Shown piece by piece: positions 18,356 through 37,828 of a stretch of DNA of 41,908 bases. Positions within the stretch are counted from its first letter, which is position 1. The number at the start of each line of letters is the position of its first letter. Source of the stretch: an uncultured Bacilli bacterium (GTDB taxonomy: Bacteria > Bacillota_I > Bacilli_A > RF39 > UBA660). The position numbers and the translations under genes were made by a program. The stretch spans positions 1-41,908 of the forward strand of contig CALVSW010000008.1 in NCBI GenBank assembly GCA_944359625.1, given 5' to 3'. The notes under the pieces were generated by a model that did not search any database, had not been told where the DNA came from, and worked only from the letters and a program-made list of their open reading frames with translations.

Positions 18356-18550
18356 TTTGCCACCGGATATATGAATCGCTTAACTTATCTCTACCAAAAT
18401 GGCTATTATTGGTCCATGTCGCCGAGCATTTTCAGCTCTGGCAGCTCTTCTGCTTACGAGTTCTATCAGTACGCAGCTGGCTATACTTTCGGCTACGACC
18501 GTGTGACCCTCGGCAATGGCTTGCGTCCGGTAATCAATCTGCAATCTGAT
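18356..18550 (+). repeat. hypervariable GC-rich cassette, copy 1
   Basis: This 195-bp unit is GC-rich within very AT-rich surroundings. It starts TTTGCCACCGGATATATG and ends with codons for GLRPVINLQSD. It lies in frame in a 79-codon ORF (18344-18583) whose start lacks a ribosome site. The encoded piece runs ATGYMNRLTYLYQNG, YYWSMSPSIF, a Ser/Tyr/Gly-rich core, then GLRPVINLQSDVTISG. This is the C-terminal end of an FGE/C-type-lectin-like (DUF6273-like) domain. The first 50 or so bases are identical to copy 2 apart from one base after the Tyr-Gln-Asn-Gly codons; the core differs from copies 2 and 3 at many codons. There is no N-terminal part of the protein. Confidence 0.8.
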
Positions 18551-18725
18551 GTCACAATAAGTGGCCAAGTTATTTTAGTATAAAAATTACTAATAAAAAT
18601 ATGACATTTTGATAATGAAATAATTATGACACTTTATCTTGAAATTTACATTTATATAAAAATAAATTTAATTTTTGTACATTCTTATATTATCATTAAT
18701 ATTCAACTGCAAAGCCATCAAATTG

Positions 18726-18920
18726 TTTGCCACCGGATATATGAATCGCTTAACTTATCTCTACCAAAATGGCAATTATTGGTCCATGTCGCCGTCCTTT
18801 TTCGACGTTGGCGCTTCGGCTGCTTTTGGGTTCTTTCAGAACGCGTCTGGCTATGCTGACGGCTTCAGCCATGTGACCAGCGGCCTTGGCTTGCGTCCGG
18901 TAATCAATCTGCAATCGGAT
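18726..18920 (+). repeat. hypervariable GC-rich cassette, copy 2
   Basis: The unit is 195 bp, the same length as copy 1, and lies 370 bases downstream in the same orientation. The left arm (through CTCTACCAAAATGGC) and right arm (GGCTTGCGTCCGGTAATCAA) are identical to copy 1. The core encodes SPSFFDVGASAAFGFF and QNASGYADGFSH instead of SPSIFSSGSSSAYEFY and QYAAGYTFGYDR. The frame continues to a TAA at 18948-18950, overlapping the end of the minus-strand XRE gene. No ATG with a ribosome site precedes it. Codon use (GGC, TTC, CTG, CGT, CCG) is unlike every neighbouring gene. Confidence 0.8.
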
Positions 18921-18939
18921 GATATGATAGGTAGTATAT

Positions 18940-19353
18940 TTATTCTTTAACTTTATTTAAATTAATTAAGCTAAGACAAAAAAGACCAATACCTAACATA
19001 ATTAAAGAATCTTTAGTAGATATTTCATTTAGAATATTTAATACTATTACAGCAATACCCATAGCAACTCCTAAAGTATTAATAATTAAAATTATTAAAT
19101 CTTTTATACTTTCTTTATTTTGATAAGGATTTTTACTGTCATCTCTTTTGCATGAATCAATTAAATAAGCACTATCTACGCCAAGAGCTTTAGCAAGCAT
19201 AGATATAGAAGTTATATCAGGATATGATAAACCCCTTTCCCATTTACTTACTGCTTTATCAGTTATATTTAATTTTTTAGCTAATTGTTGTTGAGTTAAA
19301 CCTTGTTTTTTTCTTAATTCAACAATTAGTTCATTAAACTTTTTTTCTTCCAT
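18940..19353 (-). CDS. XRE-family transcriptional regulator with membrane tail
   Basis: The 137-residue protein has an N-terminal helix-turn-helix of the Cro/C1 type (LRKKQGLTQQQLAKKLNITD, then KAVSKWERGLSYPDITSI). Two hydrophobic segments form the C-terminus (about residues 86-107 and 113-130). This layout is common in Firmicutes regulators tied to the membrane. A ribosome site GAGGTGAG fits the ATG at 19353 rather than the GTG nine bases upstream. The target genes are unknown; it sits next to cassette copy 2 on the opposite strand. Confidence 0.85.
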   Translation of the reverse strand: MEEKKFNELIVELRKKQGLTQQQLAKKLNITDKAVSKWERGLSYPDITSISMLAKALGVDSAYLIDSCKRDDSKNPYQNKESIKDLIILIINTLGVAMGIAVIVLNILNEISTKDSLIMLGIGLFCLSLINLNKVKE

Positions 19354-19433
19354 TTTTCTCACCTCAGTTTAATAATAACATTAAATATTTAAACATTAGA
19401 TAACTTATTAGTTTAATTTTCTAAACCATTAGT

Positions 19434-19859
19434 TTACTTATCTAATATTTCTAAGGCTTTTTTATACTTTTCTATTCTTTTTAAATCAGTTGGTGTTATA
19501 TTCTCTAATCTTGTGATATCACTATTATGTTTTAAATCAGCAATTTTAATTTTTGTAGCAATTGGATTAGTCTTTACTTTTTCTATATATTCTATATAAT
19601 CAATCTTTTTATCATGAGTTAATATTTTTAATAAATCTATTACTTCTTGTGGAAATTCTTTTTCTAAGTCATTAAGAGTAATATCAGTATCTTCTACTAC
19701 ATCATGTAATAATGCTACAATACATTCTAATTCCGTATCCATTTGTTCTGCTATATGAATAGGATGATAGATATAAGGTATATTTGCTTTATCAAATTGA
19801 TTTTGATGAGCATTATAGGCAATTATCATTGCCTTTCTAGTTAATTTAGTATTTATCAT
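19434..19859 (-). CDS. HD-domain protein resembling the SpoT/RelA hydrolase domain
   Basis: The protein of about 141 residues shows the order AYNAHQNQ, then YIYHPIHIAEQM, VALLHDVVEDTDIT (the HD pair near residue 51), and ATKIKIADLKHNSD. This matches stand-alone ppGpp-hydrolase (SpoT/MESH1-like) domains, which remove pyrophosphate from the alarmone using a metal ion. No synthetase domain is attached. The start is set at the ATG at 19859 because GTGAGGA lies just upstream. It overlaps the end of the GGDEF gene by 14 bases, so the two are translated together. Confidence 0.8.
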   Translation of the reverse strand: MINTKLTRKAMIIAYNAHQNQFDKANIPYIYHPIHIAEQMDTELECIVALLHDVVEDTDITLNDLEKEFPQEVIDLLKILTHDKKIDYIEYIEKVKTNPIATKIKIADLKHNSDITRLENITPTDLKRIEKYKKALEILDK

Positions 19860-20601
19860 AAAAATCCTCACTTACTTCTTTTATAAACCTTTTTTCTAAA
19901 TCACTATTATATTCATAATAACCATTTTTGCCATTATTTTTTACATAATATAATGCTAAATCTGCTTTTTTAATAGTATCACTTATTTTTTTATCATTAT
20001 TATATATTGCAATACCTGCTGAAAAAGATATATGCATCTTTTTAGATTTTCTTATTAGTTCTTGATTTATTTTATAAATTATTGATTTAACCTTTTTTAT
20101 ATTATCATTATTAAATATAATTAAAAATTCTTCACCACCATAACGAGCTGCATAATCATTACTACTAATATTTTCTTTAATAATTCTCCCAAATAATTTT
20201 AATACTTCATCGCCCACTTGATGACCATAAGTATCATTAATATCTTTAAAATCATCTAAATCACATAGAACAAAAATACTTTTTTTATTTAAAAATAATA
20301 AATAATTTTCTAAATCAGTTCTTGTTTTTAAACCAGTAAGTTTATCATTTTTAAGTTCTATAATAGTATTAATATACTTAGAAATATTTTCTAAATATTC
20401 TATTTTATATTTTACTTTATCTAGTATTATATCTTTTACTACTTTTTCATAATAAAAATTTTTATATTTAAATATATTATCTTTAATTTCATTTTTAATT
20501 ATTTTCTTATAATTTTTACTATATACTTCCTTATTATCAATTAATATAAAATATTCTAAGTTAAATTGTTCTAAAATACTTATTAAATCTTTTCCTACCA
20601 A
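19846..20601 (-). CDS. GGDEF-domain diguanylate cyclase
   Basis: The protein of about 251 residues has a poorly conserved N-terminal sensing region (residues 1-85) and a complete GGDEF domain. That domain shows NDKLTGLKTRTDLE, CDLDDFKDINDTYGHQVGDE, and the active-site loop RYGGEEF near residue 153. It should make cyclic di-GMP from two GTP. No RxxD inhibitory site is evident upstream of the loop. The start is probably the TTG at 20601, eight bases after AGGAGTGG. It is coupled to the HD gene, linking two nucleotide second-messenger enzymes in one transcript. Confidence 0.85.
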   Translation of the reverse strand: MVGKDLISILEQFNLEYFILIDNKEVYSKNYKKIIKNEIKDNIFKYKNFYYEKVVKDIILDKVKYKIEYLENISKYINTIIELKNDKLTGLKTRTDLENYLLFLNKKSIFVLCDLDDFKDINDTYGHQVGDEVLKLFGRIIKENISSNDYAARYGGEEFLIIFNNDNIKKVKSIIYKINQELIRKSKKMHISFSAGIAIYNNDKKISDTIKKADLALYYVKNNGKNGYYEYNSDLEKRFIKEVSEDFYDKY

Positions 20602-20642
20602 GATAACCACTCCTATAAATATTATATCTTATAAAAAAAGAT

Positions 20643-21050
20643 TTACATATTAAATTCTTTAATAAATCCTACTATATCACTATTAACAGTCATAATTCGT
20701 TTATTATTTAGTAATTCATTATATGTAAACCATTTATATTGAATATTATTAATTATAAAATCATTACTAAGTAAATTATCTAATACTTCTACTTGATAAA
20801 AATAATGAGTATATTCTTTTTCTACTTTAGCACTTTCTGAAAACTTTTTATGAACTTTAAAATCAATATATTTAACTTTAATATATTTTTTATCTATATT
20901 TAAAGATTTAGAAACAAAGTCAGTAACTATCTCTAACATATTATTATCTAATAATTTACAATTTAAAAACAAATAACTATCCCATCTTAAATCATAATAT
21001 TGTAAATATCTATTATTATTTTTAATTACAATAATTGCGTGTTTACTCAT
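20643..21050 (-). CDS. Nudix-fold-like protein without a Nudix box
   Basis: The 135-residue protein begins AIIVIKNNNRYLQYYDLRW and ends with KWFTYNELLNNKRIMTVNSD, the frame of a small Nudix domain. In the place of the Nudix box (GX5EX7REUXEEXGU) the sequence reads LEIVTDFVSKSLNID, with no catalytic glutamates. It is therefore probably a binding or structural relative rather than a hydrolase. The assignment rests on overall pattern only. A good ribosome site (GGAGG) is present. Confidence 0.5.
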   Translation of the reverse strand: MSKHAIIVIKNNNRYLQYYDLRWDSYLFLNCKLLDNNMLEIVTDFVSKSLNIDKKYIKVKYIDFKVHKKFSESAKVEKEYTHYFYQVEVLDNLLSNDFIINNIQYKWFTYNELLNNKRIMTVNSDIVGFIKEFNM

Positions 21051-21094
21051 ATTACCTCCATTTAAATTATATCTTATAATTTCATATTAATCAT

Positions 21095-21634
21095 TTATTT
21101 TTTAAATAAATAACATTCTTTTTCATGAGAATTTATAACACCAATTGCTTGTAAATAAGCATATATGATTGTTGTCCCAACAAATTTCATACCTCTTTTT
21201 TTTAAATCTTTTGAAATATTATCAGATAATAACGAGTGAGTAAGTCCAACTTCATAATATATTTTACCATTTGTAAATTCTTTTAAATAATTATAAAAAC
21301 TACCATATTCTTCTTTTATAAGTCTAAAAATTTTAGCATTATTAATACTAGCTTTTATCTTTAATTTATTTCTAATAATTTTCTTATTATTATATAACTC
21401 ATCTACTTTTAAATTATCATAATTACATATTTTATCAAGATTAAAATTATCATATGCTATTATAAAATCTTCTCTTTTATTTAATACACATTCCCATGAT
21501 AAACCAGCTTGAAAAGATTCTAGAATAAGCATCATAAATAGATAATGATCATCAAAGTTAGGAATACCCCATTCTTCATCATGATATTTAATATATAATG
21601 GATTATTTAAATTACACCAGTGACATCTATTCAT
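21095..21634 (-). CDS. tag: DNA-3-methyladenine glycosylase I
   Basis: The 179-residue enzyme cuts 3-methyladenine from DNA. It has the family's zinc site (Cys4 in MNRCHWC, His18 in KYHDEEWG, and the C-terminal His and Cys in NSHEKECYLF) and the recognition segment LILESFQAGLSWECVLNKR with its key Glu. Its length is normal for Tag. The start overlaps the end of the upstream ogt gene by 8 bases, so the two alkylation-repair genes are co-expressed. Confidence 0.92.
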   Translation of the reverse strand: MNRCHWCNLNNPLYIKYHDEEWGIPNFDDHYLFMMLILESFQAGLSWECVLNKREDFIIAYDNFNLDKICNYDNLKVDELYNNKKIIRNKLKIKASINNAKIFRLIKEEYGSFYNYLKEFTNGKIYYEVGLTHSLLSDNISKDLKKRGMKFVGTTIIYAYLQAIGVINSHEKECYLFKK

Positions 21635-22100
21635 AAATATTACCTTCTATTTCTAATAATTTTTTCTTAATATCTAATCCCCAATGATAACCAACTAACT
21701 TATTGTTTTTACCGACTACCCGATGACAAGGTATGATAATAGCAATTGGATTCTTGCCAAGAGCATGGCCAATTGCTTGAGCTGACATTTCTTCCTTTTT
21801 TCTTAGTTTAGCTACTTCAAAGGCTAATTTACTATAAGTAATTGTATTTCCATAAGAAACGCCTTTTAAAATATTTAATACTTGTTTTTGAAATAAAGTT
21901 AAGTTTTCTAATTTAATTAAAGGTACAAAATTAGGCATCTTCCCACTAAAATATATATCTAACCATTTACTTGTTTCTTGAAAAATTAATAAGTCTTTAA
22001 TTAAATAATTAGATTTTTCAAAACTTAATTTAGTTAAATAAACACCATCACTTTCTAAATAAATATTACCTAATTTAGATTTATAAATATATGAATACAT
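21627..22100 (-). CDS. ogt: methylated-DNA-protein-cysteine methyltransferase
   Basis: The 157-residue protein repairs O6-alkylguanine by moving the alkyl group to its own cysteine. The acceptor motif reads IIIPCHRVVG, the helix-turn-helix region is SAQAIGHALGKNPIA, and the C-terminal GYHWGLDIKKKLLEIE is typical. It sits between an unknown gene (one base upstream) and tag (overlapping), forming a three-gene repair unit. Confidence 0.92.
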   Translation of the reverse strand: MYSYIYKSKLGNIYLESDGVYLTKLSFEKSNYLIKDLLIFQETSKWLDIYFSGKMPNFVPLIKLENLTLFQKQVLNILKGVSYGNTITYSKLAFEVAKLRKKEEMSAQAIGHALGKNPIAIIIPCHRVVGKNNKLVGYHWGLDIKKKLLEIEGNIYE

Positions 22101-22101
22101 C

Positions 22102-22941
22102 TTACTTTACTCTTTTTAATGTTTTTGTAAATGTTTGATTAGGTTCTACCTCTAACCAATAAGTTAAATTAGCATTTATTCCATAAGGTATTTCATATAA
22201 TACAAATCGGCGATCAAAAAGCTTGTACTCATATAAATAATCAGTTACATAAATATTATTATCGTCTATAGGCATAACAAATTTTACATATTGAGGTTTT
22301 ATTTTACCACTAATTACTAACTCATCTAAACTTTCAATAATAAAATCTTCAGGTATTCTATTAGGATAAGAAGTTGCATCAATAATTCCTTTATTTAATA
22401 AAATTTCTTTTACATAACAAAAATCTAACAGATTATGCATAACATATTCAAAATCATCACAAAAAATACTTTTTCCCTTAATAATAGGTTTTCCATAAAC
22501 TTTATAAGAAATATTATTTTCTTCATCATAATTACAAATAAAATGATGACTTTTATAACCATTATCTTCAAGAATATATTCAATATCTCTATCCGAAAGT
22601 AATCTAATCTTTGGTGGTAATGAATTATTAATTTCTAAAGTTAAATTTTCTTTCTTAATTATTCCCGGTACTTTTACAACAGTTTTTTCAAATTCTGGTA
22701 ATATTTCCTCGGGTATTAAACAAGGTTTAAATTCAGTTATACTTCTAAATTGCGGATGATTCATAAAACATCTAAGTTCAGGATTATAAACTACATAATC
22801 CTTATCATAAATCACATAGTTAATAGGTATAATAGCAAAACTTTTATTATCCTTATAAAAATTCTGAACCATTAAATCAAAATTATCTATTTCAACTCTT
22901 CCAGATTGATACATTAAACGTTCTATATTTTCATTTATCAT
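22102..22941 (-). CDS. unknown protein leading the alkylation-repair operon
   Basis: The 279-residue soluble protein has no signal peptide or membrane helix and belongs to no family I recognise. It is rich in aromatic and acidic residues, with phrases such as NPELRCFMNHPQFRSITEF and LLSDRDIEYILEDNGYKS. A single base separates it from ogt, which overlaps tag, so it is the first gene of the unit. A role in response to alkylation damage is possible from position, but nothing in the sequence proves it. Confidence 0.65.
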   Translation of the reverse strand: MINENIERLMYQSGRVEIDNFDLMVQNFYKDNKSFAIIPINYVIYDKDYVVYNPELRCFMNHPQFRSITEFKPCLIPEEILPEFEKTVVKVPGIIKKENLTLEINNSLPPKIRLLSDRDIEYILEDNGYKSHHFICNYDEENNISYKVYGKPIIKGKSIFCDDFEYVMHNLLDFCYVKEILLNKGIIDATSYPNRIPEDFIIESLDELVISGKIKPQYVKFVMPIDDNNIYVTDYLYEYKLFDRRFVLYEIPYGINANLTYWLEVEPNQTFTKTLKRVK

Positions 22942-22997
22942 AAATTCAACTCCATGTTAAATTATTATAATTAAATCATATATAGAAGTAAATAATT

Positions 22998-23459
22998 TTA
23001 GTTAATTGTAAACTCAATACCAATATTAAAACTTTCAATATCATCATCTCCACTTGGATAAGCAAAACTTTTTATAAATCGATATTCTCCAGGTTCTAAA
23101 TTTCCATATCCATATGACCAATCAATATCTAATTCGACTGATTTATTAGTTTCTAAATAATATAAAGGTGTTATAAAAGATAATTCTTCAATTGGTTTTA
23201 ATATATACCAAGTATTATTATCTTTTATCTCTAAATGATATTCTTCTCCATATTGAAGTAATTTATCACTTATATTATTTAATATAAATACTGCTCCCCC
23301 ATTTGTTAAAGTACCTTCTTTTATAGATGTAGAAACATAATTTTCATTAATTTTAATATCAGAAACTTCTCCTAATCGTGAATCATTTTTATTTGTACAT
23401 CCCGTAAAACTAAAAACAAATATTCCTAAAAGTAAAATAGACAATAAAATCTTTTTCAT
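22998..23459 (-). CDS. lipoprotein with bacterial Ig-like (Big_14-type) domain
   Basis: The 153-residue lipoprotein has a signal peptide ending in the lipobox FSFTGC (Cys about 21), so it is anchored to the outer face of the membrane. The mature part has TSIKEGTLTNGGAVFILNN, YGEEYHLEIKDNNTWY and LDIDWSYGYGNLEPGEYRFI. This fits the Ig-like domain class I know as Big_14. A paralogue with the same plan lies at 31145. The ribosome site is AGGAG. The ligand is unknown. Confidence 0.8.
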   Translation of the reverse strand: MKKILLSILLLGIFVFSFTGCTNKNDSRLGEVSDIKINENYVSTSIKEGTLTNGGAVFILNNISDKLLQYGEEYHLEIKDNNTWYILKPIEELSFITPLYYLETNKSVELDIDWSYGYGNLEPGEYRFIKSFAYPSGDDDIESFNIGIEFTIN

Positions 23460-23492
23460 TATTAAACTCTCCTATCTTTTTTATAAATTTTA

Positions 23493-23683
23493 TTTGCCAC
23501 CGGATATATGAATCGCTTAACTAATAATTCCCAAATGGCAATTATTGGTCCATGTCGCCGCGCGGTTTCGACTCTGGCACCTCTGCTGCTCGCGAGTTCT
23601 ATCAGAGCGCGGCTGGTTATGCCGGCGACTACTGGGTGGCCATCGGCCTTGGCTTGCGTCCGGTAATCAATCTGCAAGCTGAT
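23493..23683 (+). repeat. hypervariable GC-rich cassette, copy 3 (frameshifted)
   Basis: The unit is 191 bp, in the gap between the lipoprotein and flavodoxin genes, and has the same orientation as copies 1 and 2. The left arm TTTGCCACCGGATATATG and right arm GGCTTGCGTCCGGTAATCAA are identical to the others. It lacks one base in the left arm (AATAATTCCCAAATGG replaces TATCTCTACCAAAATGG) and one codon in the core. Read after the shift, the core would give SPRGFDSGTSAAREFYQSAA. A stop follows directly after the last conserved GAT. No start or ribosome site exists, so it cannot be an expressed gene as it stands. Confidence 0.8.
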
Positions 23684-28496: not shown

Positions 28497-29009
28497 ATGG
28501 CTAATTTTAAAGAAATTGTTACCAAAGCCGTTATTGGTAAAGCTAAAAAAAGTTCAAGTAATAAATATACATTAGAAACTGAAGAAGTTCCTAATACAGT
28601 TTTAGGTTGTTGGGTAATAAATCATACATTTAATGGAACTAACGTTGGTGATAAAGTTATTGTAAATGGATCATTTGATGTAAATGTTTGGTATTCATAT
28701 GATAATGATAAAAAAACAACTGTTAGTACTAAAAAATTTAATTATACTGAAAACTTAAAACTTAAAAATCAAAATAGTTTTGATAGTGGTTCAGAAGTTA
28801 TTGTACGTAGTTTAAAACAACCTACTGTATCTGATGTATCTATTACTAATGGTATAATTAACTTAAATATTGATAAAGAATTAGGTATTGAAATAGTTGG
28901 TAATACTAAAGTAAAAGTACCTGTAGAGGACATCGTTGATGATTACGAATTAGTTGAAGAAGATATTGACTCTTCTGTAGATAAAGTAAATGAAGACTAT
29001 CTTAATTAA
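28497..29009 (+). CDS. cotE: outer spore coat morphogenetic protein CotE
   Basis: The 170-residue protein matches CotE as I know it from Bacillus: KEIVTKAVIGKAKKSS at the N-terminus, NTVLGCWVINHTFNGTNVGD, GSFDVNVWYSYDNDKKT, VIVRSLKQPTVSDVSI, and an acidic C-terminal tail. CotE directs assembly of the outer coat around the forespore in the mother cell. The ribosome site AGAAGGAG is strong. No convincing sigma-E promoter could be read. The last 387 bases of the gene and its terminator recur at 37442-37868. The presence of cotE suggests a sporulating lineage. Confidence 0.88.
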   Translation: MANFKEIVTKAVIGKAKKSSSNKYTLETEEVPNTVLGCWVINHTFNGTNVGDKVIVNGSFDVNVWYSYDNDKKTTVSTKKFNYTENLKLKNQNSFDSGSEVIVRSLKQPTVSDVSITNGIINLNIDKELGIEIVGNTKVKVPVEDIVDDYELVEEDIDSSVDKVNEDYLN

Positions 29010-37435: not shown

Positions 37436-37828
37436 ATGACACATACATTTAATGGAACTAATGTAGGAGATAAAGTTATTGTAAATGGATCATTTGATGT
37501 AAATGTTTGGTATTCATATGATAATGATAAAAAAACAACTGTTAGTACTAAAAAATTTAATTATACTGAAAACTTAAAACTTAAAAATCAAAATAGTTTT
37601 GATAGTGGTTCAGAAGTTATTGTACGTAGTTTAAAACAACCTACTGTATCTGATGTATCTATTACTAATGGTATAATTAACTTAAATATTGATAAAGAAT
37701 TAGGTATTGAAATAGTTGGTAATACTAAAGTAAAAGTACCTGTAGAGGACATCGTTGATGATTACGAATTAGTTGAAGAAGATATTGACTCTTCTGTAGA
37801 TAAAGTAAATGAAGACTATCTTAATTAA
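37436..37828 (+). pseudogene. cotE: 5'-truncated second copy of cotE
   Basis: The 130-codon frame lacks the first 46 or so residues of CotE. From HTFNGTNVGD onward its protein is identical to the product of 28497. Upstream the same frame continues through unrelated codons (QQSNPHYLQSLEWLSPKT) to a stop, so the start region is a chimera. No ribosome site precedes the ATG at 37436. It is almost certainly not expressed as functional CotE. Confidence 0.8.

What the first reader, a model, noticed from the sequence alone, without database searches (positions are those of the whole stretch)
18356..23683. Three dispersed GC-rich cassettes with fixed ends and a hypervariable core
Seen: units at 18356-18550, 18726-18920 and 23493-23683 share the same first 30 or so bases and last 30 or so bases. 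About 25 codons between them differ heavily. All are on the plus strand in gaps between minus-strand genes, and are far richer in G and C than anything nearby. Each encodes only the tail of an FGE/C-type-lectin-like domain ending in GLRPVINLQ, with no upstream part of the protein and no good ribosome site. Known: fixed ends plus a variable core is the structure of silent cassettes used in gene conversion (vls, pilS, MgPar) and of variable repeats of diversity-generating retroelements. Inference: these are donor cassettes or stranded variable repeats feeding one expressed surface-protein gene elsewhere in the genome.
Basis: partly seen in the sequence, partly recalled or inferred. Interest (0 to 1): 0.88.

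Follow-up and report, generated by a model that had tools for sequence, protein, structure and literature searches.

The report
Retroelement-written silent gene cassette library
A gut bacterium carries one complete surface-protein gene plus about forty scattered, unreadable copies of its variable tail, and the variation carries the mark of a diversity-generating retroelement (an error-prone copying machine), a combination of two known diversification strategies that I found nowhere described.

Summary
The three cassettes belong to a genome-wide set: 42 silent full cassettes plus one complete gene in the 1.25-Mb assembly, nearly all intergenic. Exactly one long gene (692 aa, contig C35) ends in the cassette. 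The hypervariable core is written by a diversity-generating retroelement (DGR). Five template repeats, three distinct, sit in a conserved structured RNA with AAC/AAT codons at the variable positions. Template adenines differ at 49.9% of sites against 5.9% for other bases (odds ratio 16, p about 1e-189). A congener (G002) has a classic DGR with the same template RNA, Avd and a reverse transcriptase. A sister species (G001) has the same one-gene-plus-silent-cassettes design. Cassettes are also copied DNA-to-DNA: the expressed cassette is identical to a silent one over about 218 nt, and the flanking arms carry species-specific fixed differences even at orthologous sites. Only the expressed gene has the DGR-type 3' hairpin. 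Not shown: the DGR reverse transcriptase and Avd were not found in this assembly (91% complete) or in the sister's, and the direction and purpose of exchange are inferred.

The parts
18356..18564 (+). Silent cassette 1: 5' arm 18356-18414, hypervariable template-homologous core 18415-18530 (116 nt), conserved 3' end to about 18564
   Evidence: adenine-site pattern against template
18726..18932 (+). Silent cassette 2: 5' arm 18726-18784, core 18785-18900 (116 nt, fits template type 3: 14 of 25 template adenines changed, 1 of 91 other bases), conserved 3' end
23492..23683 (+). Silent cassette 3: frameshifted 5' arm 23492-23550, core 23551-23663 (113 nt, fits template type 1: 18 of 29 adenines changed, 3 of 84 others), conserved 3' end; same position as cassette C54:3746-3926 in sister species G001
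18565..18725 (+). AT-rich spacer between cassettes 1 and 2; closely similar spacers recur in the cassette arrays on contigs C1 and C20

Best explanation
These are silent variable repeats (VRs) of a diversity-generating retroelement, kept as a dispersed cassette library around one expressed surface-protein gene. SHOWN: standalone template-repeat RNAs exist; core variation is adenine-specific relative to them; one complete gene carries the cassette as its C-terminal tail and alone has a DGR-type 3' hairpin; about 42 copies are silent; one silent cassette is identical to the expressed one; arms evolve in concert within each species; a congener has the intact DGR (template RNA, Avd, reverse transcriptase). 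INFERRED: a DGR reverse transcriptase, missing from the assembly, writes adenine-randomised cDNA mainly into the expressed gene; cassettes are then copied between the gene and silent sites by homologous recombination across the roughly 59-bp 5' arm and the 3' end, so that past variants are stored and can be recalled or recombined. New silent copies tend to be captured at T-tracts just after transcription terminators. The product is probably a membrane-anchored lectin-like binding protein on the cell surface.
For: One complete gene among more than 40 cassettes. Five template repeats in a conserved RNA context with AAC/AAT at variable codons. Adenine specificity 472/946 against 173/2926. Mean entropy by codon position 0.90, 0.70, 0.29. 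The congener's gene differs from its own template at 14/32 adenines and 0/81 other bases, with bAvd (PF22296; PHROG Avd of DGR) and a reverse transcriptase with the IGNMTSQ motif. The expressed cassette is identical to silent C1:112565 in the whole cassette and beyond; this pair scores 16.0 against a null maximum of 4.6. Arm diagnostics are CCGG/TCGCT in 48/48 in G000 and A(C/A)GG/TCGAT in 20/22 in G001. At the site G000 C9:24650 / G001 C66:4552, flanks are 98.4% identical but cores differ at 14/29 template adenines and 6/84 others. The expressed gene alone has a 13-bp stem with 4-nt loop, as DGR targets require in phage BPP-1 (PMC3240598). T-tract on the 5' side of 17/48 cassettes against 7.6% of control positions (p 4e-8).
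Against: No DGR reverse transcriptase or Avd in the G000 or G001 assemblies. Only one silent cassette matches the current expressed cassette, so exchange rate and direction are unknown. About ten silent cassettes have frameshifted arms and could donate only their core. The G001 expressed gene lacks a recognisable 3' hairpin. Everything rests on draft metagenome assemblies without reads.
Confidence: 0.72

Rival explanations
1. Direct-writing model: the DGR diversifies every silent cassette in place, in trans, from the standalone template RNAs. There is little or no exchange with the expressed gene, and the one identical pair is an occasional duplication.
For: Cassettes with frameshifted arms still carry cores with few non-adenine changes (C20:7950 2/91, C19:10910 2/91, C8:23492 3/84), so cores changed without their arms. 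All cassettes keep the GC-rich 3' segment shared with the template. Trans action on remote targets has been reported (PMC10907252).
Against: Silent cassettes lack the downstream hairpin (2 of 42, the background rate). The 5' arms, which lie outside the template, are nevertheless homogenised within species, and one silent copy equals the expressed cassette including 3' sequence beyond the template.
Confidence: 0.3
2. Dead relics: the DGR has lost its reverse transcriptase in this clade and the cassettes are decaying leftovers with no function.
For: No DGR reverse transcriptase or Avd found in two assemblies. Treponema denticola isolates with VR genes but no reverse transcriptase or template are known (PMC4891356). 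Several cassettes are truncated or reduced to their ends.
Against: In G000 the cores show few non-adenine changes against the templates (1 to 8 of about 84 in most) and stay near 60% GC in a roughly 25% GC genome. The templates are intact, and at one site with 98.4% identical flanks the cores have been rewritten at adenines.
Confidence: 0.2
3. A plain silent-cassette gene-conversion system of the vls/pilS/MgPar type, with variation accumulating by ordinary mutation and recombination.
For: One expression gene, many silent partial copies, fixed ends and variable core.
Against: Changes are concentrated at template adenines with third codon positions preserved, and dedicated template repeats exist.
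Confidence: 0.03
4. Assembly or binning artefact: strain variants of one gene assembled as separate fragments.
For: Several contigs end inside or next to cassettes.
Against: Cassettes sit inside long contigs with unique flanking genes, and many are at the same positions in an independent assembly of another species.
Confidence: 0.02

Closest known systems
Diversity-generating retroelements (BPP-1 type)
   Same: Template repeat in a non-coding RNA, adenine-specific variation in the VR, VR at the C-terminus of a lectin-like protein, GC-rich 3' segment and downstream hairpin at the expressed gene, and an intact Avd/reverse transcriptase locus in a congener.
   Different: About 42 VRs lie in non-coding DNA with no gene, several standalone template loci exist, and no reverse transcriptase was found in the assembly. 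The surveys read here report up to four VRs (DiGReF, PMC3521204), seven target genes (T. denticola, PMC4891356) or 15 (Thiohalocapsa PB-PSB1, PMC10907252); in DiGReF only one VR lay outside any identifiable coding region.
Silent-cassette gene conversion (Borrelia vls, Neisseria pilS, Mycoplasma genitalium MgPar)
   Same: One expressed gene, many promoterless partial copies with conserved ends, DNA-level copying between copies, and (from general knowledge, for vls) a GC content above that of the genome.
   Different: Diversity is written by reverse transcription of a template RNA rather than accumulated in the silent copies; cassettes are dispersed over many intergenic sites; unidirectional donation to the gene is not shown.
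Treponema denticola DGR with remote target genes
   Same: Many VRs far from the core locus, some genomes without a reverse transcriptase (PMC4891356).
   Different: There the remote VRs lie in target genes; here they are bare cassettes without upstream coding sequence.

Membership tests
Diversity-generating retroelement | Template repeat / variable repeat pair with adenine-specific substitutions | tested here: met
   472/946 template adenines changed against 173/2926 other bases; five templates found
Diversity-generating retroelement | Template inside a non-coding structured RNA shared with a bona fide DGR | tested here: met
   Same scaffold as the G002 DGR, 81% identical; consensus fold with 10 pairs showing double changes among 8 sequences, several near-identical. 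Rfam RT-14 only below threshold
Diversity-generating retroelement | DGR-type reverse transcriptase in the genome | tested here: inconclusive
   Not found in G000 (91% complete) or G001 (89%); present in congener G002. The two RTs in G000 are retron types
Diversity-generating retroelement | Accessory protein Avd | tested here: inconclusive
   Absent from the G000 and G001 assemblies, present in G002, G021, G030; PF22296 bAvd
Diversity-generating retroelement | Hairpin/cruciform downstream of the VR | tested here: met
   Expressed gene: 13-bp stem, 4-nt loop; G002 gene has an analogous 12-bp stem read by eye. Not met for silent cassettes (2/42) or for the G001 gene
Diversity-generating retroelement | VR codes the C-terminal part of a C-type-lectin-like protein | tested here: inconclusive
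   Met for position in the single complete gene; model pLDDT 95 resembles DUF6273/DUF1566 proteins and weakly Legionella Lcl, CD94, CD23. Silent cassettes are in no gene
Silent-cassette gene conversion (vls/pilS/MgPar) | One expression gene and many silent partial copies | tested here: met
Silent-cassette gene conversion (vls/pilS/MgPar) | Silent sequence found in the expression site | tested here: met
   C1:112565 identical to the expressed cassette; one case, direction unknown
Silent-cassette gene conversion (vls/pilS/MgPar) | Expression site changes between strains while donors stay unchanged | not testable with these tools
   No strain series or reads; between species the silent cores also differ

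The most novel reading that the evidence does not exclude
A DGR coupled to a heritable archive: variants made by mutagenic retrohoming in one gene are copied into dozens of silent intergenic loci and later recalled, giving bacteria both a random generator and a memory of useful binding specificities. New archive slots would be created by capture at the 3' ends of transcription units.
Probability: 0.35. Interest if true: 0.93.

Novelty: new variant of a known kind. Interest (0 to 1): 0.82.

Why it matters
DGRs are thought to overwrite their target, so each good variant is lost at the next event. A silent library of DGR-written variants would solve that, joining the two main bacterial strategies for surface variation in one system. 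It would also show where DGR products can go besides their target gene, and it is directly testable with long reads because 40-odd marked loci per genome record past events. Searches of the paper library found nothing on DGRs with silent cassettes beyond general reviews that mention both.

Tried and rejected
Retron reverse transcriptases in the genome (C1:73000, Ec107-like; C18:153, type II-A with an NDT-like neighbour) were considered as the writer and set aside: their motifs are QGSPTSA and LPLGLITSP and PADLOC scores them as retrons. Phage origin: no match in IMG/VR for the cassette end or the RNA scaffold. Rfam: no family above threshold; RT-14 (24 against 48 bits) and RT-17 only as weak hints. 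Polarity of shared segments among cassettes: a C31/C32/C14 trio shares its 5' part and differs mostly towards 3', but their run scores (4.7 to 5.6) barely exceed the null maximum of 4.6, so no claim is made. A first AlphaFold model with nine sequences was poor (pLDDT 62) and its matches meaningless. A general search for hairpins 3' of silent cassettes gave the background rate.

Full report
CHECK OF THE OBSERVATION. The window is contig C8 of a 1.25-Mb draft genome in 40 contigs; a closely related species (G001) is named in public records as an uncultured Bacilli bacterium, isolate BRZ_LM__bin26. Genome searches found 43 places similar to the cassette, 41 exact copies of the 27-nt 3' end with none for the reversed control, and 56 translated matches. 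I fetched 0.3 Mb around them and extracted 43 full cassettes: 42 silent and one in a gene, with 41 distinct cores. Only 2 of the 58 aligned silent pieces overlap an open frame of 120 aa or more.

THE COMPLETE GENE. One contig, C35, has a 692-aa open frame with an N-terminal membrane-spanning stretch and the cassette as its last 80 or so residues. Only its last part is GC-rich: 20-40% GC upstream, 57% in the core. A second long frame containing a cassette, on C19, overlaps two other genes in a different frame and looks accidental. Silent copies begin sharply at gene position 1827/1828 (TTTGCC), a few at 1813/1816, and end at variable points about 10-35 nt after the core.

WHAT MAKES THE CORE VARIABLE. 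Within the core, the first two codon positions vary and the third is mostly fixed (mean entropy 0.90, 0.70, 0.29). Five 'core-only' copies (C20:7607, C20:13203, C10:23426, C14:173, C35:587) carry AAC, AAT or ACT at most of those codons and sit in a conserved AT-rich non-coding context. They are template repeats of a diversity-generating retroelement, of three sequence types. Against the best-fitting template, 472 of 946 adenines are changed but only 173 of 2926 other bases (odds ratio 15.8, p 2.5e-189). A-to-G is commonest and A-to-C rarest, as described for DGRs (PMC3521204). Choosing the best-fitting template by non-adenine mismatches biases this ratio upward, but with three templates the bias cannot explain a 16-fold difference; the cassettes are also not fully independent of each other, so the p-value is nominal.

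THE DGR IN A CONGENER. G002, same genus, has a standard locus: VR gene (676 aa), an ISL3 transposase, a small ORF, the template repeat in the same RNA scaffold, Avd and a 372-aa reverse transcriptase with the IGNMTSQ motif. Avd is confirmed by Pfam bAvd and PHROGs. Its VR differs from its template at 14/32 adenines and 0/81 other bases. G002 has three complete genes and, in the search, no silent cassettes. The RNA scaffold folds into a consensus structure with ten pairs supported by double changes, though the eight sequences are few and partly near-identical.

WHAT IS MISSING. Neither the DGR reverse transcriptase nor Avd was found in G000 or G001. Both assemblies are about 90% complete and break at these repeats, so absence is not established. 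The two reverse transcriptases in G000 are retrons.

DISPERSED CASSETTES ARE COPIED. First, the expressed cassette and silent cassette C1:112565 are identical from TTTGCC through about 218 nt, beyond the template region, before diverging. Two independent adenine-random events could not give this; the pair scores 16.0 against a null maximum of 4.6. C2:29911 and C2:30253, neighbours in an array, are also identical in the core. Second, many cassettes occupy the same site in G001, yet the 5' arm, which is not in the template, has species-specific bases: 48/48 in G000 and 20/22 in G001, the two exceptions (C66, C28) lying in stretches that are 98.4% and 94.5% identical to G000 and so perhaps recently transferred. 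Concerted evolution is the simplest reading; independent insertion at the same sites is the alternative. Third, at the G000 C9 / G001 C66 site the flanks are 98.4% identical while the cores differ at 14 of 29 template adenines and 6 of 84 other positions.

WHERE THE DGR PROBABLY WRITES. In phage BPP-1 a hairpin 3' of the VR is needed for efficient homing (PMC3240598). The expressed gene has a perfect 13-bp stem with a 4-nt loop just after its stop codon, and the G002 gene an analogous one with a CTCT loop (sequence). Only 2 of 42 silent cassettes have a stem of 9 bp or more within 120 nt, the background rate. This favours writing into the expressed gene followed by copying to silent sites. Against it, cassettes with frameshifted arms carry fresh cores, so core-only replacement also occurs, by direct homing or short conversion tracts. 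The G001 gene shows no hairpin, and its silent cassettes fit the available templates less well (which stopped part-way with an error after twelve cassettes); its own templates are mostly not assembled.

HOW CASSETTES SPREAD. T-tracts lie directly upstream of 17 of 48 cassettes against 7.6% of control positions. Both sites that are occupied in one species and empty in the other lie in the T-tract after a terminator-like hairpin. The three window cassettes are not clear examples of this. Capture at transcript 3' ends is a speculation from this pattern.

PROTEIN. With 50 homologues AlphaFold gives a confident C-terminal model (pLDDT 95). It resembles DUF6273/DUF1566 viral proteins, a Thomasclavelia protease region (E 7e-5), and weakly the Legionella Lcl domain and several C-type lectins (E above 0.1). 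This fits the lectin-like fold of DGR targets but does not prove it.

DISTRIBUTION AND NOVELTY. Among 147 genomes, only G000 and G001 have many short-frame cassette matches; relatives have complete genes. DGR surveys read here report up to four VRs, seven target genes or 15 target genes. The literature searches gave no report of a DGR with a silent cassette library. I rate it a new variant of a known kind: the parts are known, the combination appears not to be.

Noticed in passing
window 28497-29009 and 37436-37828: A 300-bp direct repeat (99%) of a coding sequence, second copy truncated, bounds an 8.8-kb stretch with excisionase-like and replication-protein-like genes; possibly an integrated element.
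   Followed up: no
L199 4440-4790 (G000 C11:10553) and L200 80-400 (G001 C10:148): The RNA scaffold that carries the template repeats also occurs without any template repeat, next to a ribosomal-protein L27-like gene in both species; ARAGORN (G000 copy) and Rfam (G000 copy) do not identify it.
   Followed up: partly
L066 6265-6352, L073 4767-4838, L077 12941-13057: Cassettes reduced to their two conserved ends with the variable core missing.
   Followed up: no
L064 7292-8153 and 12887-14040; L071 9108-9958; L121 1-737: Template repeats are sandwiched between two silent cassettes (VR-TR-VR modules) at several loci, also in G001.
   Followed up: partly
L088 (G000 C9:24318-27130) and L122: A 2.6-kb stretch is 98.4% identical between G000 and G001, whose other shared regions are mostly 80-90%, suggesting recent transfer carrying a cassette.
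   Followed up: partly
L067 7001-7960 and L065 153-2073: Two retron reverse transcriptases, one Ec107-like and one type II-A-like with an NDT-like neighbour.
   Followed up: partly
L063 587-704 against 903-1093: The template next to the expressed gene is type 3, whereas the gene's current cassette fits type 1, so its content came from elsewhere (another template or a silent cassette).
   Followed up: partly
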